Source of the DNA: JBFJWU01 sp041623475 [NCBI: bacterium]
Lineage (GTDB): Bacteria; J088
Direction: 5' to 3'
Length of the DNA: 14,704 nucleotides
Assembly (NCBI GenBank): GCA_041623475.1
Contig: JBFJWU010000039.1
Location: forward strand, 1-14,704
Made by a program: the position numbers and the translations under genes. Below, in pieces: positions 1-13,763 of the stretch; within the stretch, counting starts at the first letter, position 1, and every line of letters begins with the position of its first letter. Under the pieces are notes generated by a model that worked only from the letters and a program-made list of their open reading frames with translations, was not told the DNA's origin and made no database searches.

Positions 1-565
1 CAATATCAATGTCGTCGTCTTCGAAAAGGTCGTCCGTCCCGAACAGACTTTCGATACTCAGGATCTCGTTCTGGATCAGCTCTTCTTTTGGCCCCATAAA
101 CGGGATCGCCATGTAAACGATTGGCTCGTCGTCGATTGTGAAATCGCCCTTGGATTCCTTGAGGGTAGGGGGTGGCTCCCACGCAGCCAGCCAGTCGCTG
201 TAGACGGGGTTGGCCAGTTCACTGAAAACAACCTGCCCAGTTCTGTCGCGGATCTCGACAAAACGGAATTCCGGATCACTTAATATCGGCTCCAGGAGCA
301 GCTCAATTTCTTCACGGTCAAAGCGCCCGCTCTGGAAGTTGTTCTTGCCATAGAAGTGAAGGAACTTGACGGTGCTTTCGAGATGCCGTGCCTGGCTTTG
401 GACAAATTCGTCCCCCAGTCTGGTCTGGTAGAAGAAATGAATAATGGCACTGACAAAGACAATGACCACACCTGTAAGCAGGACCAGTTTGAATCGCAGT
501 CCCATCCGCAATGCCCCCAAGGAATACTCCCGGGCATCAAACTGAATTGGAATCTTGAATTTCAT
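1..565 (-). CDS. membrane-anchored sensor, probable chemoreceptor or sensor kinase (partial)
   Basis: The reading frame is open from the ATG at 565 to the left window edge (188 residues, no stop), so only the N-terminus is present. A cytoplasmic segment of about 24 residues precedes one strong hydrophobic helix (about residues 25-46, LVLLTGVVIVFVSAIIHFF). A presumably periplasmic sensory region follows, containing VEIRDRTGQVVFSE (about 103-116) and VYMAIPFMG (about 150-158), which resembles single-Cache or PAS-like input domains of chemoreceptors and sensor kinases. The visible part ends in an acidic stretch. The start overlaps the stop of the upstream cheW by 4 nt (ATGA), and a GGGGA lies 9 nt upstream. 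As last visible gene of a che operon, a methyl-accepting protein is the natural guess. A HAMP-containing histidine kinase is equally compatible, because the signalling domain lies outside the window. Confidence 0.75.
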   Translation of the reverse strand, partial: MKFKIPIQFDAREYSLGALRMGLRFKLVLLTGVVIVFVSAIIHFFYQTRLGDEFVQSQARHLESTVKFLHFYGKNNFQSGRFDREEIELLLEPILSDPEFRFVEIRDRTGQVVFSELANPVYSDWLAAWEPPPTLKESKGDFTIDDEPIVYMAIPFMGPKEELIQNEILSIESLFGTDDLFEDDDIDI

Positions 566-1176
566 GAGTCAGCGTCCCCGGGCTTGGTCGCGCGCTTCTT
601 TTTGGCCGGGGGTTTCTTCCTGGCTGGTGGGCGGCCCTTTTTCTCGCTGGAAGGTCTCTTTGTGGCTGTTTCGCCTGATTTCTTACGGTCCCGCGGTTCG
701 TCGCCTGCCAGCAGCGACGAGCGCAATTCCTCCATATGGAGTTTTTCTTCCGAGGTCAGGACGTTTGACAGGTCCAACAACAGGATGATCTCGTTGTCCG
801 AGCGGATAACCCCTTCAAGAAATCCCGGTGCGGTGCCAATCTTGGGCGGGGGTTCAATCGAATCGCCGTCGACAACCATTACGTCCCGTACCGAATCGAC
901 GGTAAATCCAACCGGTTGTCCGTCAATTGGTGCAATAATGATGCGGCTTTTTTCGGCATTGACAACGGGTTCCAGTCCCAATCGGTCGTGTAATCCAATG
1001 ACGGGAACAATTTCAGTTCCGCGCAAGTCGGTGACGCCACTGAGGAATTCGGGGGCGCGGGGGATCTTGCGGATCGCCTGATACCGGGCGATCTCGCGGA
1101 TTTGCAGAATGTCCAGCGCGAATTTGTCGTTGCCGACGTAAAAGACAACGACCTGGCGCTCAAGCAGCTCGTTCAT
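562..1176 (-). CDS. cheW: CheW-like coupling protein with lysine/arginine-rich C-terminal tail
   Basis: The product (204 aa from the chosen start) has a CheW SH3-like domain over about residues 7-150. CheW hallmarks are DKFALDILQIREI, RKIPRAPEFLSGVTDLRG, IVPVIGLHDRLGL and EIILLLDLSNVL. CheW links chemoreceptors to CheA in signalling arrays. After the domain, residues 162-198 form a disordered-looking tail in which 17 of 37 residues are Lys or Arg, mixed with Pro, Ala and Ser, like histone-H1-type tails; an ordinary CheW has about 160 aa and no such tail. I chose the ATG at 1176 over an in-frame GTG at 1191 because GGGGA lies 8 nt before it; this gives a 17-nt overlap with the upstream cheW. 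The stop overlaps the next gene's ATG. The family is certain. The tail's role (array contact, DNA binding, or pairing with the acidic arm of the neighbouring CheW) is open. Confidence 0.93.
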   Translation of the reverse strand: MNELLERQVVVFYVGNDKFALDILQIREIARYQAIRKIPRAPEFLSGVTDLRGTEIVPVIGLHDRLGLEPVVNAEKSRIIIAPIDGQPVGFTVDSVRDVMVVDGDSIEPPPKIGTAPGFLEGVIRSDNEIILLLDLSNVLTSEEKLHMEELRSSLLAGDEPRDRKKSGETATKRPSSEKKGRPPARKKPPAKKKRATKPGDADS

Positions 1177-1918
1177 CACTCGATTCCCCACGGTCCAGGA
1201 CCGTGTCCAGGCTGATCAGCGCGATCAGTTCGTCGTCAATCCGGATCAAGTCAGACAGAAATTTCCCGGCCGTGTCTGTCAACGCGGCAGGGATCTGCTC
1301 CAGACGCTCCGGATTGATCCGTTCCACGTTGTTGACCTCGTCGACCAGTAGTCCGCACGGTTCGTCATAAAACGTTACCACGATTATCCTTTGTGCGCTG
1401 CCTTCGTTGATTTCTATTCCCAGTCGACGTCTCAGGTCAACGACGGGGACCATGGTGCCGCGAAGACTGACAATTCCCAGGATCCATTCGGGGGTCCTGG
1501 GGACCCAGGTATATCCGCGAGGTTTGACGATTTCTTCGATTTCTTCCAGATAAATGGCAAAGAATTCCTTGTTTAACCTGAACCGCAGGATTTCAACCAG
1601 TTCGTCAACATCGTCGTCGAAGTCGAGTTCGTCTGGATCGTCGATTTCTTCGGCTTCCTCTGAGTCGTCAACATCGTCGTCGGGATCATCTTCCTCGTCC
1701 CATTCTTCGTCCTCGGCATCTTCACCCGGTTCAACGTCTTCGTTGGATTCCGACACCGGGTCGTCGTCGAAAAAATCGCTATCCCCGAACTCTCCAGCCA
1801 GCATGGCATCGTCAAGTTCCAGATCTTCGTCCGTTGTCTCAATCGCATTTTCGCCAGCAGGTTTGTCCGTCTGGGCTGGTTGTTTGCGGGCGCGTTTTCG
1901 GAGTTCTTTGAAATCCAT
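1160..1918 (-). CDS. cheW: CheW-like coupling protein with long acidic N-terminal arm
   Basis: The 252-aa product has three parts: a short basic start (FKELRKRARK), an extremely acidic segment (about residues 29-106, 46 of 78 residues Asp or Glu), and a CheW domain (about 107-243). CheW motifs are FAIYLEEIEEIVKP, WILGIVSLRGTMVPVVDLRRRLGI, CGLLVDEVNNV and ELIALISLDTVL. The frame stays open to 2110, but its first 64 codons lie inside the upstream ATPase gene and encode no recognisable sequence. The ATG at 1918 is preferred: it lies 1 nt after the ATPase stop, with GGTGG about 6 nt upstream. The acidic arm is coded by a GAT/GAC-rich tract with an exact 18-nt direct repeat (1602-1619 and 1665-1682), giving DDDVD twice, so it may have grown by internal duplication. 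The acidic arm and the next CheW's basic tail make a complementary pair. Confidence 0.92.
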   Translation of the reverse strand: MDFKELRKRARKQPAQTDKPAGENAIETTDEDLELDDAMLAGEFGDSDFFDDDPVSESNEDVEPGEDAEDEEWDEEDDPDDDVDDSEEAEEIDDPDELDFDDDVDELVEILRFRLNKEFFAIYLEEIEEIVKPRGYTWVPRTPEWILGIVSLRGTMVPVVDLRRRLGIEINEGSAQRIIVVTFYDEPCGLLVDEVNNVERINPERLEQIPAALTDTAGKFLSDLIRIDDELIALISLDTVLDRGESSDERAA

Positions 1919-1919
1919 G

Positions 1920-2726
1920 TCAAGCCACCAGGCCAAGGTCAGTCGACACATCCAGAACAATGTCCCTGGTAATCGGGTCCTGCTGGCGGACATACCCTTC
2001 GAGGATGGCGTTGGCGCAGATATTATTAACCACCCGGGGTATCCCGTTGCTGTTTTCAGCAATAGCCGCAATCGCCCCATCGTCAAACATCGCTTTCTTG
2101 CGGCCGACACTGGCGATTCGGGAATGTACGTAATCGCTTACCTGCTCTGTGTCCAATGGGCCGAGATGAAAACGAATTCCAATCCGTTGCGCCAAAGGGC
2201 GAAGCCTGGGATGCAACAGCCGCCGGGAAAGCTCGGGTTGTCCGACCAGCAGTACGCCAATCAGGTTTTCCTGATCCATCTGGATGTTTGTCAGCAGTCG
2301 CAGTTCTTCGATTGTATCGGGGAACGGCAACATCTGTGCCTCGTCGATCAACAGCACGACTGGTTTGCCATTTGACCAGGCCGCAAAGATCCGTTCCTGA
2401 ACGGCATCCAACAGTTCGACCCGATTCCGCGGAACCGGGTCGACACCCAGCCTGATCGCGATCTGATGCAGTAACTGGTTTGGCGTCAGTCGGGGGTTGA
2501 GGATCCAGACGATTTCGACTTCGTCGTCCAGGCGATCGACCAGCACGCGGGTAGCCGTCGTTTTTCCGACGCCAATGTCACCGGTCAGGACCGCAATTTC
2601 ACGCTGTAGCGCTGCGTGTTCGAGGCGGGCGATTGCTTCTTCGATTTCGTCGGTCAGGTACAGGTTCTCTGGGTCCGGTGCCTTGGAGAACGGGTTGCGC
2701 TCGATCTTGTAGAACGATTCAGGCAT
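1920..2726 (-). CDS. ExeA/GspA-type AAA+ ATPase
   Basis: This 268-aa P-loop ATPase belongs to the ExeA/GspA/MshM group (AAA_22-like, also related to TniB). It starts with the group's typical YKIERNPFSKAPDPENLYLT. Next come Walker A (GDIGVGKTT, residues 49-57), Walker B (VVLLIDEAQ, 123-131), a sensor-1 strand (VLLVGQPEL, 158-166), an arginine-rich finger region (RPLAQRIGIRFHLGPL, 176-191) and the sensor-2 motif GIPRVVNNIC (228-237). It ends right after the AAA+ module, without the transmembrane helix and peptidoglycan-binding domain of secretion ExeA. It lies between cheA and cheW, overlaps cheA by 8 nt, and has no clear Shine-Dalgarno of its own, so coupled translation is likely. Family members use ATP to assemble or place pilus and secretion parts. 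Here it may position or remodel the array or drive an output. Family assignment is firm; role is inference. Confidence 0.9.
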   Translation of the reverse strand: MPESFYKIERNPFSKAPDPENLYLTDEIEEAIARLEHAALQREIAVLTGDIGVGKTTATRVLVDRLDDEVEIVWILNPRLTPNQLLHQIAIRLGVDPVPRNRVELLDAVQERIFAAWSNGKPVVLLIDEAQMLPFPDTIEELRLLTNIQMDQENLIGVLLVGQPELSRRLLHPRLRPLAQRIGIRFHLGPLDTEQVSDYVHSRIASVGRKKAMFDDGAIAAIAENSNGIPRVVNNICANAILEGYVRQQDPITRDIVLDVSTDLGLVA

Positions 2727-4734
2727 GGCTGTGGCGGGTTGTTTCGTCGATTATTGCCGCGACATCAAGAACCAGGACTGTCTGGCTGTCGCCCATTTCT
2801 GTCGCCCCGGCAATTCCCGGCGTCTCCCTAAGGATTGATCCGACTGATTTGATAACCACGTCCTGCTGCCCCAGCATTCGGTCCACCAGCAGGCCCATAC
2901 GTTTCTCTGCAAGGCCGACGACGACGATAAACGGGTCGGTTGGTGGTTCGCCGGCACGGTCAAGGCCAAATATCGAATCGAGCCGGATCAACGGCAGCGT
3001 CATCCCCTGGTGATAGTGAACTTCGCGGTTCTCTACGGTCTGGATCTGGGATCGGTCAATCACCAGGCTTTCGAGCACCGCGTTCAGCGGGATTGCAAAC
3101 TTCATGTCGCAGACGTCTACCAGCAGCGCCTGGATAATCGCCAACGTTATCGGCAAGGTCAGGATCATTGTGCTGCCCTGGCCGGGTTGACTGCGGACGT
3201 CAATCAGCCCGCCCATCGTTGCGATATTGTTCTTGACCACGTCCAGTCCAACGCCGCGGCCACTGATTTCACTGACTTCTTCTTTGGTGCTGAAGCCGGC
3301 CTCGAACAGCAGTTGGAAAATCTCTTCGTTGGTCAACTCCTGGTCTTCACGGATCAGGCCTCGTTCCAGGCCTTTGGCACGGATCTTTTCGGGGTCGATT
3401 CCACCGCCATCGTCCTCGACCTCGATAACAACGTGGTTGCCCTTCTGGTAAGCCCGGATAACCAGTTTTCCCGCCGGTTTCTTGCCCGCGGTTTTGCGTT
3501 CCTCGGGAAACTCGATGCCGTGGTCAATCGCGTTTCGGACAATATGCATTAACGGGTCAGCGAGGTCCTCGATCAGTAACTTGTCCAGCTCCGTGTCGGC
3601 GCCAATAATTTCGAGGTCAACTTCTTTGCCGAGGTCCTTGGAGGTCTTGCGAATAATGCGGTTGAGCTTGTCGAATACCTGGCGCATTGGCACCATCCGT
3701 ACATCCATTACCCGCTGTTGCAGTTCGTGAAGTTTGCGGTCCAGGAGCTTCGCCTGCTTGGTTACCTCGACCGCAACAGTCGAGCCGCCGGAATGCTGCC
3801 GTAATGATTCGGCATGTCGGTTCAGGGCACTTTTGATCAAGACCAGTTCGCCAACAATGTTGGAAATCTGGTCAATTCGCTCGATGTCCACCCGTACGGT
3901 TTTGGCAATGCTGCGCAACGAGTCCTGCGCTTCGACGGTTTCGGAACCGGTGTCCGCAATTGCCGGGGCAGGCGGTGCAGTCTGAGCGATTTCGGAAATC
4001 TCGGGTTCGTCGTCAGCAAGCAGGTCAGAGAGACGTTCGGCTGGCTCGGCGCTGCCGACCAGCAGGTCGAACGCCAGTTGATCAGGAGAGGCTTCGATCT
4101 GGCTGGGGAGCGTCGTAATCAATTCGCCGATTTCCTTGATCGCCGTCGTCGCGGCGGTCAGGCGGCTGTCAAATTCCATCAGCGGAAAGCGAAGGGAACA
4201 GCGGTAGATATTCCTGTGCTGCTTGACGTTCTCGCGCAGTCGATGCTCTTCATATTCGGTCAAGACATTCAGCAGATCCTGGTCTACGTCTAGTCGATCC
4301 AGGGGGTCTTCCTCTGATTGTCCAGACTGGTTCTTGATGAAGTCCGCCACCCGGCCCTCGAACGGAGATACGAGTTCTTCAGGCACGTCAGATTCATTTG
4401 TTGAAATTGTTCCGACGGCATTGCGCAACTGCGCGACACCGTCAAGCAGGAAGTCCAGGACACCTTCGGAAAAATCGATTTTCCCCAGACGCATCTGGTC
4501 GAGCAGGTCTTCAAGATTATGGGCCAGGCGGCTCATGTTTCCGAACCCGAACATCCCCGACACGCCCTTGAGTGAATGGGCGCCACGAAATAGTCGGTTG
4601 ATCAGGTCCGGGTCGACGGTCATCGCCGATTGCATAGCTGCCTCGACGGCGATAATGTCCTGTCCCATTTCCTCGAGGATTTCTTCTGCCTCTGACAGGA
4701 AATCCCTGAGCGCTTTTTCGGAGTATTGTTCCAT
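2719..4734 (-). CDS. cheA: chemotaxis histidine kinase CheA
   Basis: The 671-aa product has the full CheA layout. Hpt/P1 has phospho-acceptor His53 in RGAHSLKGVSGMFGF. A P2-like alpha/beta domain follows at about residues 176-240, starting IYRCSLRFPLMEFDSRL. After an Ala/Pro/Glu linker come the P3 dimerisation helices (about 275-345, VRVDIERIDQISNIVGELV) and the P4 HATPase domain: N box HIVRNAIDHG from 397, G1 EDDGGGID at 440-447, G2 GRGVGL at 492-497. The CheW-like P5 domain (about 535-665) closes it. All residues needed for ATP binding and His phosphorylation are visible, so the kinase should be active. I chose the ATG at 4734, which shares its A with the cheY stop (TGATG), over a TTG one codon upstream. 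It presumably docks to the receptor array through the two neighbouring CheW proteins and phosphorylates the adjacent CheY. Confidence 0.97.
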   Translation of the reverse strand: MEQYSEKALRDFLSEAEEILEEMGQDIIAVEAAMQSAMTVDPDLINRLFRGAHSLKGVSGMFGFGNMSRLAHNLEDLLDQMRLGKIDFSEGVLDFLLDGVAQLRNAVGTISTNESDVPEELVSPFEGRVADFIKNQSGQSEEDPLDRLDVDQDLLNVLTEYEEHRLRENVKQHRNIYRCSLRFPLMEFDSRLTAATTAIKEIGELITTLPSQIEASPDQLAFDLLVGSAEPAERLSDLLADDEPEISEIAQTAPPAPAIADTGSETVEAQDSLRSIAKTVRVDIERIDQISNIVGELVLIKSALNRHAESLRQHSGGSTVAVEVTKQAKLLDRKLHELQQRVMDVRMVPMRQVFDKLNRIIRKTSKDLGKEVDLEIIGADTELDKLLIEDLADPLMHIVRNAIDHGIEFPEERKTAGKKPAGKLVIRAYQKGNHVVIEVEDDGGGIDPEKIRAKGLERGLIREDQELTNEEIFQLLFEAGFSTKEEVSEISGRGVGLDVVKNNIATMGGLIDVRSQPGQGSTMILTLPITLAIIQALLVDVCDMKFAIPLNAVLESLVIDRSQIQTVENREVHYHQGMTLPLIRLDSIFGLDRAGEPPTDPFIVVVGLAEKRMGLLVDRMLGQQDVVIKSVGSILRETPGIAGATEMGDSQTVLVLDVAAIIDETTRHSHA

Positions 4735-5114
4735 CAACTCGCCAGGTACTTGTCGACAAGTTCCTTCAGGCGTTCGGGAGCAAATGGTTTGACCAGATAC
4801 TCATTTGCGCCCAATGCCAGGCCCTTTTGACGGTCCCGAGGGCTGCCTTCGGTGGAAATGATAATCAATGGAATGGCTGAGTAATCCCGATTCGAACGCA
4901 GGAACTGGATTAGCTCTAAACCGTTGATATCGGGCATGTTAATATCGGTCAGGATCAGGTCAAACTTGTGCTGAGGAATGACTTTCAGCGCTTCCAGGCC
5001 CGAGGCGCATTCAATGACATCTGCGTCGCCAAAGTCCTGGACGACGGAACTGATCATCGAACGCATCGCGTCCGAATCCTCGACGACCAGGATCTGCTTG
5101 CGCGGCAACGTCAC
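4734..5114 (-). CDS. cheY: single-domain response regulator, CheY-like
   Basis: The 126-aa product is a bare receiver domain with every signalling residue in place: acidic pocket Glu12/Asp13 (VVEDSD), phospho-acceptor Asp57 (LILTDINMPDINGLELI), Ser87/Thr88 (IISTEG) and Lys109 (YLVKPF). CheY-type proteins receive phosphate from CheA and carry the signal by diffusing to the output machine. The start is a GTG at 5114 that overlaps the preceding gene's stop by 4 nt (GTGA). A TTG two codons further in is the only nearby alternative. It is the second gene of the operon, directly before cheA, so it is the likely substrate of that kinase. The target cannot be told from the sequence; no flagellar switch gene is nearby, and the operon suggests a surface-motility or pilus output instead. 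Confidence 0.95.
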   Translation of the reverse strand: MTLPRKQILVVEDSDAMRSMISSVVQDFGDADVIECASGLEALKVIPQHKFDLILTDINMPDINGLELIQFLRSNRDYSAIPLIIISTEGSPRDRQKGLALGANEYLVKPFAPERLKELVDKYLAS

Positions 5115-6787
5115 GCGCCTGCGTCCCGGGAATTCATTTCCCTGATCTGTTTCAACAGGAATGCTCGTTCCAGAGCCAAGCCCGCTTGTGCAAGAAACAC
5201 CTCGACTGTTTCGACATCACGAATCTGAGTCTGTGTCGGGACCTGATCCGCGTACAGCATAGCAACGATGCGCCCCCCTGCCAATACCGGACTGACGACG
5301 ATCTCCAGGGGTTCCGGTCCACCCAGGCGATTGAATAACATCTTGTGGGCCGGGTTGTCCGGCGGCTTCCCTGTAAATGTCCTGTGGGTCTCGTAGACCT
5401 GGTCAAAGACACTTTCCTGGCCTAATTCAATTTGCAAGTCCCGGACCGAAATACTGTCGTCGCCGCTGCGCAGACCGACCTGGCCTAAGCCGACCAAGCG
5501 GCTTTCGCTGACGGCAAAAAATACGCTGCGTTGAAAAAAGTCGGATGCAAATCGCAGAATCAGCAAGCTGACTTCGGCTTCGGCATTGGGGTTCGTCAGT
5601 TCTTCCATCATATGCCGAAGTAAGTGCATCCCCCTGTCTGTGCGCGGTTCGGGCATCTTGACATGGAGGTCTTCTTCTGCCATCAATGCCGCCAGCGGAT
5701 CATCAAGGCTGATGTCAAAACCTGAATCGGGCTGCTCTTCCTGTTCCGGTTCCGGGTCGGGGGCAATCGGTGGGCCAATCGCGGTCAGGACGGCTTGGGA
5801 AAATGTCTCCAGGGCTTTGTCTGGTTCCGTTTTCCAATCCTTGCGAGCCGGTTTGGTAATAAATGCCTTGACACCGGCATCGCGACCTTGTGTTTCGATT
5901 TCTTCGTTGATCATGTCGGAACACAGGTAAACATCGCGTACTTTTTCGTGCCCGGACAGCTCCTGTGCCACTTCCAGGCCCCCCAGTACGCCGGACCGGT
6001 CCCGTTTTGGCATGACCAGCTCACAGACGATTGTCCAGTCGTCTTCGTTGGCACGTCCAATCACGTCGGCTGCACCGGCAACAGAGTTTGCGACGGCGAC
6101 GTGGCCGTAGCCGCGGGCGCGCAAGGCGCCGGACAAGCGGTCTGCCATATCCGGCTTGACATCGACGACCAGGATTCGACTGACCGAGTCATCGGCTTCG
6201 TCAGGCATTGAGCCAGTGATGGTCTCGTCACCGACATCGCGCTGATCCGGCTCCATACTGGCGGCGGATTCATCGTGCAGGCGCGCACCTTCCATCGCCA
6301 GGAACTGGGCGCTCAGTCCCTCCTCGTCCGAAGGGAAAACTGGTACCTGAATGACTTTTCGATAAACGGATTCATTTGGGTCCATTTCGAAGCTGAACTC
6401 GCCACTGTTCCACTGTGATGCGCGGGTTACGAGCCAGATCATGTAGCCTTCGGCCCAACGGGTCAACTTGTCCTGGTCTTCTTCGAACTCGGCGGCCCAG
6501 AATTCCGTCCAGGTTTCCGGGCGAAATGATTTTTGTTTGAGGACCTGGAGGAAACGCTGTTCCTGCGTGTCCGACAAGACGCGCTTGTCGGTGAAGAACC
6601 TGTGCAGAGTCGAAATTGAGGGGTGGGGGCGTGCGGCAACAACATCGCCCGAGCGGATAAACAGGTCCAGTCCCTTGTCCCGGCTGGTCATTCGCAGGAT
6701 ACCACTCTTCCTGGACAACGAAAGGATCTGGAGAATGTCGTTCAGCCCCAGGTCTTCCAGGCTGCCAGCAAGGCTTACGGAGCTCAT
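5111..6787 (-). CDS. PATAN (DUF4388) protein with degenerate receiver and GAF-like domains
   Basis: First gene of the che operon, 558 aa. The N-terminus (about residues 6-150) is a DUF4388/PATAN domain: LAGSLEDLGLNDILQILSLS, GILRM and LFIRSGDVVAA. After a linker, residues 203-325 form a receiver-like domain (SRILVVDVKPD...). The phospho-acceptor position is Glu256 (IVCELVMP) instead of Asp, and the second acidic-pocket residue is Val210; Ser290 and Lys312 (AFITKP) are kept. It should not be phosphorylated normally, and the Glu may mimic a locked-on state. An acidic, Pro-rich linker leads to a GAF-like domain (about 384-545) ending EIVVSPVLAGGRIVAMLYAD and a helix. PATAN-receiver proteins of cyanobacteria control type IV pilus motility, one by binding PilB. 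The start ATG at 6787 has GGAG 7 nt upstream and is preferred over a GTG 6 codons earlier. Domain calls are good; the output is inference. Confidence 0.87.
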   Translation of the reverse strand: MSSVSLAGSLEDLGLNDILQILSLSRKSGILRMTSRDKGLDLFIRSGDVVAARPHPSISTLHRFFTDKRVLSDTQEQRFLQVLKQKSFRPETWTEFWAAEFEEDQDKLTRWAEGYMIWLVTRASQWNSGEFSFEMDPNESVYRKVIQVPVFPSDEEGLSAQFLAMEGARLHDESAASMEPDQRDVGDETITGSMPDEADDSVSRILVVDVKPDMADRLSGALRARGYGHVAVANSVAGAADVIGRANEDDWTIVCELVMPKRDRSGVLGGLEVAQELSGHEKVRDVYLCSDMINEEIETQGRDAGVKAFITKPARKDWKTEPDKALETFSQAVLTAIGPPIAPDPEPEQEEQPDSGFDISLDDPLAALMAEEDLHVKMPEPRTDRGMHLLRHMMEELTNPNAEAEVSLLILRFASDFFQRSVFFAVSESRLVGLGQVGLRSGDDSISVRDLQIELGQESVFDQVYETHRTFTGKPPDNPAHKMLFNRLGGPEPLEIVVSPVLAGGRIVAMLYADQVPTQTQIRDVETVEVFLAQAGLALERAFLLKQIREMNSRDAGA

Positions 6788-6794
6788 AACTGGT

Positions 6795-6798
6795 CTCC
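6795..6798 (-). promoter_or_regulatory. ribosome binding site of the first che-operon gene
   Basis: GGAG on the minus strand lies 7 nt before the ATG at 6787. It decides that start over the in-frame GTG at 6805, which has no comparable site. Confidence 0.7.
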
Positions 6799-6883
6799 GC
6801 CGCACGGGGTTTCAGACCGCTGGAAAGGCTGCGACACAGACTGCTGATCGCACAGATTTTTCCCATTATCGAACATGGGCAAC

Positions 6884-6889
6884 ATTATA
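6884..6889 (-). promoter_or_regulatory. candidate -10 box of the che operon
   Basis: A perfect TATAAT is seen on the minus strand in the 175-nt gap between the lipoprotein stop and the first che-operon gene. Transcription would begin near 6876, leaving a leader of about 89 nt. No good -35 is present at 16-18 nt; the hexamer 17 nt upstream is TAGAAT (3 of 6 matches), so the promoter may need an activator. It is the only strong promoter-like hexamer for the seven-gene operon inside the window. Confidence 0.55.
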
Positions 6890-6962
6890 GTGAAAAGCCC
6901 AGTTGGATTCTACGGTGGCCGGGCGGAAAATTCTTACGTTACAAGGACTTGCGGGAATCCGG

Positions 6963-9461
6963 TTACGGGACCAGTGATAAATTGAATCCGATTCGGCCGA
7001 ACCCGTTTGAGGCATCTTCCCAGACACCAATTGCCCCGGACGGGCTGGATCCGATCGCGGGTGTCCAGGCGTGAGTAACCGATTGACCGCCACCGTCCAG
7101 GCGAGTTGGTTCGGCAAATCCGTCGATTGCGGTTCCGCGCACATACCAGGACCGGACGGTCGCGTCGTCGACCGACTGCCAAGCGATCCAGATTCTGTCG
7201 CCTTGTGATTCGATTTCCGGTGCTGCAACGGATCGGTCCAGTCGATTGCTCAACGGGATATCAAGGGGTTCGAAGTCTGTGTCGAATCCGATAACGGATG
7301 CCTGGATTCGCGTGTTGGCATCGCCCGGTCGCTGGCCGGTCCACGCCAGCCACGCGTTGAATTGGTCGTCGATTCCGCAATCAACACCGGTCACATTCGG
7401 GTACTGCTCTGGTTCTTCGGTGATAGGCCAGGTTTCCTGAAAAATTTTGCCGCCTTCATCAATGTCGGATGTCGCGACCGATACGGACCCAGGAAATTCA
7501 ATGTCAGAAATCCAGCAATAAAGCTGGTTTCCGTCAGGCAGCATTGCCACGCGCGAAAAATACGCGCCGGCCGGATCAGCTAACGTTGACTCGGTATTGG
7601 CTGACAGCCATTGAGGCTGGAAAAAGAAATTACTGGTTTCGGTACTTGCTGACAGGGCACCGGTGACAGCGGCCACGGCTCCGACACCAAACCTGTAGTC
7701 AGTCCACGTAAATGCAAGTTTCGTTTCGTCGCCATCATTGAACCCAGCGACATCGGGCCACAACTGCGGGCCCCCAGTGTTGTCAATGATTGTTGGGGGG
7801 CTCCACTGGCTGCTTTGGGTGCTGAACGTTGCATATCGAATTCGTTCCAGTCCGGGCCCTCCCTGTTCCCACACAGCGACCAGCAATTGCCCTGCATTGA
7901 CCAGTCGTATATTTCGTGCGGCCGTCTGGACCGTTGCGATTTCACCCTGGTCAATTATTGCCCCTTGCTCCAGCGTGCCCCAACGGACGGTTGCTGTTGT
8001 CCCTAATTGTGCGGTCCAGGCGACCAGCACCTGATTGTCGCCCAGCACCGCTACGGAGGGGCGTACCGTGTGTGCGGTAACGCCACCGGGAGTGTTGAAC
8101 GGATAGGCTCCGGATTGTGGAAGTCGTACCTCGGCGGCGGCCAGTCCGGCGGTGTAGGATCCCTCGTTTGGGGCTTCGCTGCCCGGGCCAAGCTGAATCC
8201 CCAACTCCGTCAGTACGTCGCGGCGTGCATCGTCTGTGATGGCTGCATTTGAATCAGCCGGGTCCGGAAAGGTCCACTCGCCGATATCGGCATAGCCGCG
8301 TTCGGCAATATTGCCAACGAATGCCATAGGCGGCTGGCCAGAATCGACCTTGCGGGTGATATGGCTTTGTCCGTCCAAAGCCGCACCGGGAAGGTTTCCT
8401 GACAGCGTTGCAGTTAGCCCGGCCAGGATCTGCGGCAAATGTTGAACCGACGCCCAAGCCCCGGATCTGGCCAGGTCTGGAATCCATAAATCGTTGATCG
8501 GGTTGTACGTCCAACCCGGGTATGAGGTCGGCTGGACAATCAGTCCGCCGCCCAGGTCGGCCAACCTCCGCCTCAGGTCGAGACGATCAATATCGTTTCC
8601 GGGCAGGGGAGCGATCCTGATGGGGGCTACACCTGGTGAATTAGACAGCAGCTCCATGGGGCGAAGTTCGGCGAATTTCCTGGGTGTCAGTCCCCGGTTT
8701 CGATCATCCAGGGTGGCGTGGGCAGCTGGAATCGTGCCGATTCGGTCGCCGTTGGGGGCGTAGATTACCAGCTGCCGTTGTACCGTCGGGGATTCCGCGA
8801 CGATGGCCTGTCCGGGAAACGCCAGTTCGTCGCCGAAATCGGCGATCTCAGTTGCGTCAGAGGTTGCCCGTGTGTTGGTTGGAGCAACAATTGATGCAAC
8901 CGTCAGCATTCCTGACAACGCCGCAAATTCACCGACAATGATGTCTGTTGTGAGCCAGTTGACATTACCCAGGGCCAGTTCCAGCGCGTGCTGGTCTGAC
9001 ACAATCGCAGAGCCAAATTGCGCCCGATACAGGTCCATGACCGATTTGTATTCTGCCTGCAGCCGGCTTCTGGCTTCGGACAAGGAAGCGGCTGTTCTGG
9101 CGTTCTGTCCGCGGGGTCCGAGGAACTGCGCGAAGTCTGATAGATCACCGGGAAGTACGACCAGGTTTCGCCCGTCACGGCGCTGGCATTCAGCGAGCCG
9201 TGATGCAGCCTGCAACGCCGGGGCCCGAACCGATTCCAGGTCAAAGTCCGCGTCTATCTGAAAGTCCAGGCCCACGGCAAACGCACGGACATCGCCATTA
9301 CCAGCGATTTCCAACGCACAGTTGTTGATTTCATCGTCTTTTCCGTCGTCAAACAGGCCCAGCGCCGACGTCAGCGCCGAGCACGCCGATAAACACACGG
9401 CCATCGGAACGAGGCAGGCCAGGCGTGCTAAGCGATTGCGGGCAATCAGCTTTTTCGCCAT
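6963..9461 (-). CDS. lipoprotein with degenerate nitrilase-like and beta-propeller-like domains
   Basis: The 832-aa product starts with a signal peptide and lipobox (LSAC, acylated Cys27, Ser at +2), which predicts an outer-membrane lipoprotein. Residues 58-366 read like a carbon-nitrogen hydrolase (nitrilase) fold: RAFAVGLDFQID, LVVLPGDLSDF, LVIYAPNGDRIG, RRRLADLGGGLIVQPTSYPGW, GLTATLSGNLPGAALDGQS. The catalytic residues look lost: the Glu after LVVLP is Gly, the Lys region reads DDRNRGLTP, and no Cys is seen in the IRIAPLPGND stretch. The rest (about 480-832) has repeated blocks of the type VLVAWT, LLVAVWEQ, LAFTWTDYR, AWLAWTG and IWIAWQS, like beta-propeller blades. I chose the ATG at 9461 because it places the signal peptide at the N-terminus; the frame stays open to 9563. 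It stands alone, divergent from the next gene. Lipoprotein call is firm; domain calls are inferences from pattern. Confidence 0.8.
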   Translation of the reverse strand: MAKKLIARNRLARLACLVPMAVCLSACSALTSALGLFDDGKDDEINNCALEIAGNGDVRAFAVGLDFQIDADFDLESVRAPALQAASRLAECQRRDGRNLVVLPGDLSDFAQFLGPRGQNARTAASLSEARSRLQAEYKSVMDLYRAQFGSAIVSDQHALELALGNVNWLTTDIIVGEFAALSGMLTVASIVAPTNTRATSDATEIADFGDELAFPGQAIVAESPTVQRQLVIYAPNGDRIGTIPAAHATLDDRNRGLTPRKFAELRPMELLSNSPGVAPIRIAPLPGNDIDRLDLRRRLADLGGGLIVQPTSYPGWTYNPINDLWIPDLARSGAWASVQHLPQILAGLTATLSGNLPGAALDGQSHITRKVDSGQPPMAFVGNIAERGYADIGEWTFPDPADSNAAITDDARRDVLTELGIQLGPGSEAPNEGSYTAGLAAAEVRLPQSGAYPFNTPGGVTAHTVRPSVAVLGDNQVLVAWTAQLGTTATVRWGTLEQGAIIDQGEIATVQTAARNIRLVNAGQLLVAVWEQGGPGLERIRYATFSTQSSQWSPPTIIDNTGGPQLWPDVAGFNDGDETKLAFTWTDYRFGVGAVAAVTGALSASTETSNFFFQPQWLSANTESTLADPAGAYFSRVAMLPDGNQLYCWISDIEFPGSVSVATSDIDEGGKIFQETWPITEEPEQYPNVTGVDCGIDDQFNAWLAWTGQRPGDANTRIQASVIGFDTDFEPLDIPLSNRLDRSVAAPEIESQGDRIWIAWQSVDDATVRSWYVRGTAIDGFAEPTRLDGGGQSVTHAWTPAIGSSPSGAIGVWEDASNGFGRIGFNLSLVP

Positions 9462-9495
9462 GCGACGGGTTCTTTCGCGACTCGATTGCGCATGT

Positions 9496-9513
9496 CCGTA
9501 TTGTCCCATACGG
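9496..9513. promoter_or_regulatory. inverted repeat in divergent intergenic region
   Basis: CCGTAT and ATACGG form perfect 6-bp arms around a 6-nt spacer, next to GGCCGGCC. It lies 35 nt before the lipoprotein start and about 80 nt before the DUF1015 promoter, a usual place for an operator serving either gene. Arms this short can arise by chance. Confidence 0.3.
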
Positions 9514-9595
9514 CCGGCCACAAGTACAGACGAGGCTGTGGTGGCCTGGATTCCTGTTACCACGGACGATCATCGCGTGTACAGGGGATTCACAC

Positions 9596-13283: not shown

Positions 13284-13763
13284 ATGGCAAAAAAGAAGAC
13301 ATCCAGTAAAACAAGTGGCCCCGGGGCACCGGACGACGTCGCCGACGAAACAACCTTTGAGGTAGGCGAGGGGGGACTGGCAGACGTCCTGAAAAAGATG
13401 GCCTATTTGGGAGTGGGGACAATGTTCGCGACCCAGGAAACGGCATCAAGGATGGTCAAAGACATGACGTTGCCGCGTGAAGCTGTTAACGCCATTGTCA
13501 ACGCCATTGAGCGGAATCGCGATGAAATTGCCCGGGCTGTTTCCAAGGGGACCGAGGATTTTCTGCGCAATCTGGACATTGTCCATCTGGCAAAGAAGAC
13601 GTTTGACGGTATGAATATCCGCGTCAGCGGCGAAATCCAGTTCAACTACGATCCGACAACGCGATCGTCAGCCAAAACAAGATCGAACACCAAGGTCAGT
13701 GTCGGACGGAAGTCGGGTGGCCGGGGGCGAAAACGGGGCGCAAATAGCGAACCGGGTTCTTGA
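13284..13763 (+). CDS. small phasin-like protein with basic tail
   Basis: The 159-aa product has a basic, Ser/Lys-rich start (AKKKTSSKTS) and an alpha-helical core. The core resembles PHA-granule phasin-regulators (COG3937-like): GGLADVLKKMAYLGVGTMFATQETASRMVKDM, written here as LADVLKKMAYLG, FATQETASRMVKDM and AVNAIVNAIERNRDEIARAVS. A DFLRNLDIVHLAKKTFDGM helix and a predicted strand (IRVSGEIQFNYD, about 112-123) follow. The last 35 residues are strongly basic (KTRSNTK, GRKSGGRGRKRG). Phasins such as PhaF join a granule-binding helix to a basic DNA-binding tail, which this layout echoes, but similarity is weak and the strand is not phasin-like. I do not recognise a firm family. It converges on the Fe-S oxidoreductase gene across a strong terminator. 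Confidence 0.75.
   Translation: MAKKKTSSKTSGPGAPDDVADETTFEVGEGGLADVLKKMAYLGVGTMFATQETASRMVKDMTLPREAVNAIVNAIERNRDEIARAVSKGTEDFLRNLDIVHLAKKTFDGMNIRVSGEIQFNYDPTTRSSAKTRSNTKVSVGRKSGGRGRKRGANSEPGS

What the first reader, a model, noticed from the sequence alone, without database searches (positions are those of the whole stretch)
1..6889. Seven-gene overlapping operon: a candidate non-flagellar chemosensory system with an atypical parts list
PATAN pseudo-receiver, CheY, CheA, AAA+ ATPase, acidic CheW, basic CheW and a membrane sensor are linked by overlaps of 4, 1, 8, -1, 17 and 4 nt. This combination is unlike the standard flagellar, Pil-Chp or Frz operons I know. The only strong promoter-like box is before the first gene. 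The set may be a distinct chemosensory class coupled to surface motility or secretion.
Basis: partly seen in the sequence, partly recalled or inferred. Interest (0 to 1): 0.6.

Follow-up and report, generated by a model that had tools for sequence, protein, structure and literature searches.

The report
Esn-like, non-flagellar chemosensory operon
This is a chemosensory gene set from a barely sampled bacterial lineage whose parts and order match a known class that, in Geobacter, helps cells colonise electrodes; its least understood part is an ATPase paired with a tailed adaptor protein.

Summary
In detail: seven minus-strand genes with exactly the stated junctions. It is a conserved operon, not a new class. 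The one close relative found (G001, MAG labelled Ca. Dadabacteria J088) has CheA-AAA-CheW-CheW-sensor on one contig and MCP end-Zn-ribbon receiver-HEAT/CheR-CheB-GAF-CheY on another. The window CheA lies in a 38-row clade (support 100/99). Of 36 class members found in 395 genomes of the Desulfuromonas phylum, 25 have CheY as next recognised gene upstream and 22 the AAA ATPase downstream. Published G. sulfurreducens GSU2222-2221-2220 (esnC, ATPase, esnB) shows the same order and matters for electrode growth (PMC5585712); the class fits the delta-proteobacterial beta group (PMC2577667), though no named sequence could be compared. FliG_C was found in 23 of 37 class genomes, not in G001. New here: the AAA gene and a short N-terminal peptide on the first CheW are both present or both absent in 75 of 76 loci, with too few independent changes for significance. 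Verdict: new member of a known kind; the ATPase/tailed-CheW pair deserves a test.

The parts
5111..6787 (-). PATAN (DUF4388) + degenerate receiver + GAF-like protein, 558 aa; first gene of the operon
   Evidence: Pfam DUF4388 6.4e-18, Response_reg 5.5e-8, GAF_2 3.8e-5 (below its cut-off); start codons; aligned with L120 and L121 over its length, 31-32% identity, receiver Asp replaced by Glu
4734..5114 (-). CheY-like single-domain receiver, 126 aa
   Evidence: Response_reg 3.3e-28; CheY is the next recognised gene upstream of CheA in 25 of 36 class clusters
2719..4734 (-). CheA histidine kinase, 671 aa (Hpt, P3, HATPase, CheW; P2 match below cut-off)
   Evidence: Pfam; trees; alignment
1920..2726 (-). 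AAA+ ATPase (AAA_22, like TIGR03015/ExeA; nearest solved structure by sequence MuB)
   Evidence: AAA_22 3.6e-23; TIGR03015 210.9 bits, below its 324.5 cut-off; PDB hit 8xvb 'ATP-dependent target DNA activator B' 1.1e-8 over profile positions 18-269 of 276
1160..1918 (-). CheW with N-terminal peptide MDFKELRKR and ~100-aa acidic linker
   Evidence: CheW 5.3e-31; motif
1892..1915 (-). codons of the N-terminal peptide DFKELRKR, of the pattern found on CheW1 of the AAA-bearing clusters
562..1176 (-). second CheW, basic lysine-rich C-terminal tail
   Evidence: CheW 2.6e-34; start codon
1..565 (-). membrane sensor, truncated by the window edge; probably the N-terminus of a methyl-accepting chemotaxis protein
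   Evidence: 174.5-bit match in G001 L089; at the same place G014 and G062 have an MCP; G001 contig C375 ends inside an MCP. Direct match to the G014 MCP is weak, E 0.085

Best explanation
The window holds the first part of a chemosensory operon that is orthologous to the delta-proteobacterial beta-group / Geobacter Esn system. Inferred mechanism: membrane receptors (at least one probably encoded in the operon) form an array with CheA through the two CheW proteins; the array sets CheA autophosphorylation; CheA phosphorylates the stand-alone CheY and, from the downstream genes of relatives, CheB and the Zn-ribbon receiver protein, while CheR/CheB adapt the receptors. The output is not the flagellar switch but a change in surface or biofilm lifestyle; in Geobacter this runs with the c-di-GMP synthase EsnD, encoded elsewhere. 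The PATAN-receiver-GAF protein is probably an output or scaffold protein; in this lineage its receiver has lost the phospho-acceptor. The AAA+ ATPase probably acts on the array through the first CheW, whose N-terminal basic peptide is joined to the CheW domain by a flexible linker. Shown: genes, order, domains, CheA clade, AAA/peptide co-occurrence. Taken from the literature: the electrode phenotype in Geobacter. Inferred: orthology to GSU2222 itself, all phosphotransfer steps, and the AAA-CheW contact.
For: Gene order shared with G001, G014 and G049. Clade of 38 CheA rows, support 100/99, separate from E. coli CheA and from all 37 other rows in that tree; with a second phylum added, 77 rows, SH-aLRT 100. 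Next recognised gene upstream is CheY in 25 of 36 and downstream is AAA in 22 of 36 class clusters. Of 17 AAA-bearing clusters held as long stretches, 16 go on to HEAT, CheR and CheB; in the other (G173) the contig ends after HEAT. G001 contig C375 carries MCP end-ZnREC-HEAT/CheR-CheB-GAF-CheY, the order of the G049 tail, where an unnamed 278-aa protein stands in the GAF place. GSU2220 CheW / GSU2221 ATPase / GSU2222 CheA in print, Tn-Seq table values -2.4, -2.1, -2.8; deletion of esnB or esnC harms electrode growth but not Fe(III) oxide reduction (PMC5585712, passages). The beta group is described from Geobacter and myxobacteria (PMC2577667 section 12). Genome G401 carries both this cluster (L174) and a cheW-cheA-cheR-HDOD-cheB cluster (L178) that fits the Geobacteraceae-only alpha group with its HD protein, which suggests that it is a Geobacteraceae and that L174 is its beta cluster.
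Against: No named Geobacter or Myxococcus CheA sequence could be compared directly, so identity with the beta group/Esn rests on gene order, the co-resident HDOD cluster and host range. Tran et al. say that beta clusters hold no mcp gene; here MCPs lie in the clusters of G014 and G062 (and weaker hits in G287, G267, G346) and in 15 of the 39 class clusters read in the second phylum. Esn receptors in Geobacter are class 40H, whereas the MCPs of G014 and G062 have about 30 heptads after the tip, against 21.6 by the same crude measure in an E. coli receptor. The class is not uniform: 14 of 36 lack the AAA next to CheA, and of nine AAA-less clusters held as long stretches besides G110, six show only CheB and three none of HEAT, CheR, CheB. 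The window ends before cheR/cheB, and in G001 these lie on a separate contig. FliG_C is present in 23 of 37 class genomes, so a flagellar role in some hosts is not excluded.
Confidence: 0.75

Rival explanations
1. A flagellar chemotaxis system (F class) of an unusual composition.
For: FliG_C is found in 23 of 37 class genomes; CheR/CheB/CheY are of the usual kind.
Against: FliG_C is not found in G001, G014, G049 and 11 more class genomes; no flagellar family was hit by the window proteins scanned; E. coli CheA is outside the clade; PMC2577667 says that none of the major Geobacter che clusters lies close to the flagellar genes, and the published phenotype is on electrodes.
Confidence: 0.1
2. 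A type IV pilus (Pil-Chp-like) system in which the PATAN protein is the pilus-facing output, as recalled for cyanobacterial PATAN regulators.
For: The T2SSE family (pilus/secretion ATPases) is found in 37 of 37 class genomes; a PATAN hit precedes CheA in 24 of 36 class clusters; the Geobacter electrode Tn-Seq list also holds pil genes.
Against: T2SSE also matches in 14 of 14 control genomes (13 over the cut-off), so it discriminates nothing; CheA has one Hpt stretch, not several as in ChpA (recalled); no pil family was hit by the operon proteins scanned.
Confidence: 0.15
3. The AAA gene is an unrelated passenger and the CheW peptide is merely a lineage trait.
For: Only 2 independent contrasts lie on supported branches; in one the peptide goes with the ATPase, in the other it does not differ. 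G111 keeps the peptide without the ATPase.
Against: Presence/absence agrees in 75 of 76 loci; a che cluster of another CheA class in G072 again pairs AAA with a CheW that starts MAKIGEIRKKK, although the search pattern itself does not match it; of 53 AAA loci examined (51 distinct places) only that one has che neighbours, and the other 52 show two scattered matches to the pattern downstream; Tn-Seq lists GSU2221 beside its neighbours (polar effects not excluded, and no GSU2221 deletion was among the mutants seen).
Confidence: 0.3

Closest known systems
Geobacter sulfurreducens Esn system (GSU2220 EsnB, GSU2221 ATPase, GSU2222 EsnC; EsnA and EsnD elsewhere), PMC5585712
   Same: cheA - ATPase - cheW order; CheA/CheW pair; not tied to a flagellar locus
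   Different: the window lineage probably has its own receptor in the operon; its PATAN receiver is degenerate; MCPs found in clusters of two relatives look longer than 40H; sequences were not compared directly
Delta-proteobacterial group beta che clusters, PMC2577667 section 12
   Same: cheA, cheW, cheB, cheR content in relatives; found in Geobacter-like genomes and in a second phylum that is probably Myxococcota
   Different: described as without mcp; this lineage is not among the hosts named in that section
Vibrio ParC/ParP array-positioning pair, PMC5706961
   Same: an ATPase paired with a CheW-like protein whose N-terminus (in ParP) binds the ATPase
   Different: ParC is a ParA-type ATPase (recalled); here an AAA+ ATPase of the AAA_22/MuB-like kind; no binding shown
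XrtA/PEP-CTERM ATPase TIGR03015, and MuB
   Same: AAA+ family, near full-length profile matches
   Different: below the TIGR03015 cut-off; no exosortase or transposase family was hit by the window proteins scanned
Frz / Dif / Pil-Chp
   Same: non-flagellar chemosensory logic
   Different: no CheA-CheY fusion, one Hpt in CheA, no CheC/CheD domain in the operon proteins run against Pfam

Membership tests
delta-proteobacterial beta group / Esn (40H) class | CheA belongs to the same clade as named beta-group CheAs | tested here: inconclusive
   The window CheA is in a 38-row clade 100/99 and a 77-row clade, SH-aLRT 100, but no named beta-group CheA could be put in the tree
delta-proteobacterial beta group / Esn (40H) class | cheA - ATPase - cheW order (GSU2222-2221-2220) | tested here: met
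   window; 22 of 36 class clusters; published locus numbers
delta-proteobacterial beta group / Esn (40H) class | cheB and cheR in the cluster | tested here: inconclusive
   beyond the window edge; in G001 on a separate contig C375; present in the G014 and G049 clusters
delta-proteobacterial beta group / Esn (40H) class | no mcp gene in the cluster | tested here: inconclusive
   G014 and G062 carry an MCP after the second CheW, as do 15 of 39 second-phylum class clusters, while other class members show none, so the trait varies inside the class; the window sensor is cut off and only probably an MCP (weak)
delta-proteobacterial beta group / Esn (40H) class | works with class 40H receptors | tested here: inconclusive
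   MCPs of G014/G062 have about 30 heptads after the tip, crude measure; the window receptor is cut off
delta-proteobacterial beta group / Esn (40H) class | needed for electrode or biofilm growth | not testable with these tools
   published for Geobacter only
flagellar (F-class) chemotaxis | host has a flagellar motor | tested here: inconclusive
   FliG_C not found in G001, but it is a fragmented MAG; 23 of 37 class genomes have it
flagellar (F-class) chemotaxis | CheA groups with E. coli CheA | tested here: not met
Pil-Chp (Tfp) | multi-Hpt CheA (ChpA) and pil genes alongside | tested here: not met
   one Hpt stretch, no pil family hit among the window proteins scanned; definition recalled
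Frz-type ACF | CheA-CheY fusion | tested here: not met
   separate CheY gene, no receiver domain in CheA
ParC/ParP | ParA-type ATPase binding the N-terminus of a CheW-like protein | tested here: not met
   the ATPase is AAA_22/MuB-like; binding not testable
MiST F1-F17/ACF/Tfp classes | class HMM score | not tested
   class models not available here

The most novel reading that the evidence does not exclude
The AAA+ ATPase and the tailed CheW form a detachable array-control module: a MuB/TnsC-like AAA+ ATPase grips a short N-terminal peptide ([D/N/E][L/I/F]xx[I/A/L]Rx[K/R]) on one CheW through a long flexible linker and so places, clusters or remodels the chemosensory array, an AAA+ counterpart of the ParA-type ParC/ParP pair. 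The module is present in the window lineage and in 22 of 36 Desulfuromonas-phylum members of the class, was not seen in the 39 class clusters read from the second phylum, and a similar pair occurs once in a che cluster of another CheA class (G072).
Probability: 0.35. Interest if true: 0.62.

Novelty: new member of a known kind. Interest (0 to 1): 0.42.

Why it matters
It extends a chemosensory class known mainly from Geobacter electrode biofilms to a lineage with almost no sequenced relatives in the held collection, and gives that class a fuller parts list (PATAN, CheY, CheA, AAA, two CheW, MCP, Zn-ribbon receiver, HEAT, CheR, CheB, GAF, CheY). It also turns an unexplained ATPase gene that appears in the Geobacter electrode Tn-Seq list into a testable proposal: that it acts on the array through the tail of one CheW.

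Tried and rejected
A scan of genome contigs with CheA found no relative; the CCG gene at the window's other end found L001 at 84% and opened the way to G001. Class- and phylum-level searches centred on G001 covered only G001 itself. Looking for the operon's AAA in the phylum of G028 gave at best 189 bits, not far below the weakest operon AAAs (196-199 bits for L174, L176, L177), but none of the 30 loci taken has che neighbours; the CheA search there then showed the class without the AAA. Promoter argument rejected. Significance of the AAA/peptide pairing rejected as unproven. Paper searches with PATAN+CheA+CheW and DUF4388 listed nothing on this operon. A Geobacter chemotaxis review (PMC8396549, passages) did not help. 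PMC13194489 (passages) reports no mutations in the Esn genes in its evolved anode strains, which neither helps nor hurts. I did not run structure prediction.

Rows and choices: I gave the genomes of 50 of the 80 loci. Searches scored three or four candidates per genome, so their counts are lower bounds. The 253-aa CheA fragment in L119 was left out of the trees. G577 was read and falls outside the class, but stays among the 76 rows of the pair count. Two of 40 second-phylum loci (L307, L323) gave no CheW hit and were left out of the pair count; one 12-bit AAA hit (L302) was counted as absent. The peptide pattern was written after seeing the sequences; a looser form was used; neither form matches the G072 CheW, whose peptide was recognised by eye. 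Some second-phylum CheW frames (L299, L304, L309, L317) are over-extended upstream, so a motif could be missed there. Background for the pattern: 16 of 451 reading frames of 200 aa or more. In one search two places were held twice (L217/L270, L218/L271), so its 53 loci are 51 places.
Full report
OBSERVATION. The window carries seven minus-strand genes in the order PATAN-receiver-GAF, CheY, CheA, AAA ATPase, CheW, CheW, membrane sensor. With the most likely start codons the junctions are 4, 1 and 8 nt overlaps, a 1-nt gap, 17 and 4 nt overlaps, as reported. CheA has Hpt, dimerisation, ATPase and CheW domains; the P2 match is below cut-off. The promoter claim does not stand: one TATAAT in the window against 1.05 expected and 7 two-hexamer sites in 1-7300 against 3.4 +/- 2.1.

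WHERE IT COMES FROM. No genome is held for the window. A CheA scan of genome contigs found nothing. The CCG-domain gene at the other end of the window matched one MAG at 84%, labelled Ca. Dadabacteria J088; the next best were 59-60%. Searches at class and phylum level around that genome (G001) covered only G001 itself, so the lineage is almost unsampled in the held collection.

THE REST OF THE OPERON. G001 contig C144 starts inside CheA (67% identity over 273 columns) and goes on AAA-CheW-CheW-sensor, where the contig ends. Another G001 contig, C375, ends inside an MCP and carries a Zn-ribbon receiver protein, a HEAT-CheR fusion, CheB, a GAF protein and a CheY. Desulfuromonas sp. BM515 (G049, L121) has the same tail order, with an unnamed 278-aa protein in the GAF place (a like-placed 274-aa protein in L174 has a GAF domain); Deltaproteobacteria bin23 (G014, L120) agrees up to CheB, where my stretch ends.

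A CONSERVED CLASS. Among the genomes of 50 of the 80 CCG loci, only G014 and G049 had CheA matches well above the rest (616 and 583 bits; next 352). In 395 genomes of the phylum of G049, 36 have a CheA of at least 424 bits and the next match is 375 bits (three candidates per genome were scored, so counts are lower bounds). In these 36, the next recognised gene upstream of CheA is CheY in 25 and downstream is AAA in 22; a PATAN hit precedes CheA in 24 (some loci are short or end near CheA). Of 17 AAA-bearing clusters held as long stretches, 16 continue to HEAT, CheR and CheB and one contig ends after HEAT. The AAA-less ones differ: G110 has HEAT, CheR and CheB, six (G287, G327, G267, G346, G168, G305) show only CheB, three (G398, G243, G417) none of these, and four were held only as short stretches. 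A maximum-likelihood tree of 76 CheA rows puts the window, G001 and the 36 in one clade (100/99), apart from E. coli CheA and 37 other rows. In a second phylum (that of G028, whose title reads Deltaproteobacteria; probably Myxococcota, my inference) the class is also common (282 genomes). I read 40 of the listed places; 39 fall in the class by the tree, which then has a 77-row clade with SH-aLRT 100; 15 of the 39 have an MCP hit in the stretch read.

COMPARISON WITH THE KNOWN. Tran et al. 2008 describe a beta group of che clusters in Geobacter and myxobacteria with cheA, cheW, cheB, cheR and no mcp, and an alpha group with an HD protein only in Geobacteraceae (PMC2577667: abstract, passages and sections 6, 7 and 12 seen). 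Genome G401 here holds a cheW-cheA-cheR-HDOD-cheB cluster outside the class (L178) and a cluster of the present class (L174), which fits alpha and beta in one Geobacteraceae genome. Chan et al. 2017 (PMC5585712, passages) list GSU2220 CheW (esnB), GSU2221 ATPase and GSU2222 CheA (esnC) with Tn-Seq values -2.4, -2.1 and -2.8 on electrodes; esnA, B, C and D deletions grow badly on electrodes but reduce Fe(III) oxide like the wild type. EsnD makes c-di-GMP (PMC6456294, passages). Desulfuromonas genomes are reported to carry beta-group clusters (PMC8235581, passages). I could not compare the GSU2222 sequence, so membership rests on order, content and host range. Against it: many clusters of the class carry an mcp, and the MCPs of G014 and G062 look longer than 40H (about 30 heptads after the tip; 21.6 by the same measure in an E. 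coli receptor).

FLAGELLA AND PILI. FliG_C: 23 of 37 class genomes; not found in 14, among them G001, G049 and the single-contig G014. T2SSE ATPases: 37 of 37, but also 14 of 14 controls (13 over the cut-off), so uninformative.

THE ATPASE AND THE TAILED CheW. The AAA protein's best solved relative by sequence is MuB (1.1e-8). In all 24 AAA-bearing clusters (22, the window and G001) the first CheW starts with a peptide like M(D/N)LAxIRKKA and in general a long low-complexity linker; of 14 class clusters without the AAA, 13 lack it and one, G111, keeps it. G111's close relatives G173 and G145 have the AAA, and G111 has only 147-157-bit paralogs elsewhere. In the second phylum none of 38 loci with a CheW (37 of them in the class) shows the peptide and the only AAA hit is one of 12 bits. 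Together 75 of 76 agree, but independent contrasts on supported branches are only two: in one the peptide goes with the ATPase, in the other it does not differ; so this is not statistically shown. Outside the class, G072 has a CheY-CheA-AAA-CheW-MCP-CheR-CheB cluster whose CheW begins MAKIGEIRKKK, seen by eye; its own class cluster has neither AAA nor peptide. Of 53 AAA loci examined (51 places, the G072 one included) no other has che neighbours. Text searches for chemosensory AAA/CheW/ParP terms, Geobacter/Myxococcus CheA with MuB and the GSU locus tags listed no paper on such a pair by title or abstract; of the listed papers I saw passages of PMC5706961, PMC5585712, PMC13194489 and PMC8396549 only.

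PROPOSED WORKING. Receptor, two CheWs and CheA form the array; phosphate goes to the stand-alone CheY and, from the downstream genes of relatives, to CheB and the Zn-ribbon receiver; output is a lifestyle change on surfaces rather than motor switching. The window's PATAN receiver has Glu in place of the acceptor Asp that the two relatives aligned keep, so in this lineage it is unlikely to be switched by phosphorylation. The AAA+ ATPase is proposed to hold or remodel the array through the CheW tail, by analogy with ParP, whose N-terminus binds ParC (PMC5706961, passages). All of this paragraph is inference except the residue change.

Noticed in passing
L268:728-11306 (G072): A second che cluster, CheY-CheA-AAA-CheW-MCP-CheR-CheB, whose CheA scores far below the class; it repeats the pairing of AAA with a CheW that starts with an IRKKK-type peptide.
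   Followed up: partly
L200:11640-19919 (G001:C121): G001 has another che cluster, CheA-CheW-MCP-HEAT-CheR-CheB, whose CheA sits on a long branch outside the class.
   Followed up: no
L148 (G111): The one exception: CheW1 keeps the N-terminal peptide and linker although the AAA gene is missing next to CheA.
   Followed up: partly
6963-9563: 866-codon reading frame with a lipoprotein-like start further in and no Pfam match at E 0.1, directly upstream of the operon on the same strand.
   Followed up: no
13284-13763: 159-aa protein with a lysine/arginine-rich C-terminus; only a sub-threshold Pfam hit (E 0.04).
   Followed up: no
L175:15065-17239 (G201): A 724-aa protein with many CxxCH motifs (multihaem cytochrome-like) follows the class cluster in this genome.
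   Followed up: no
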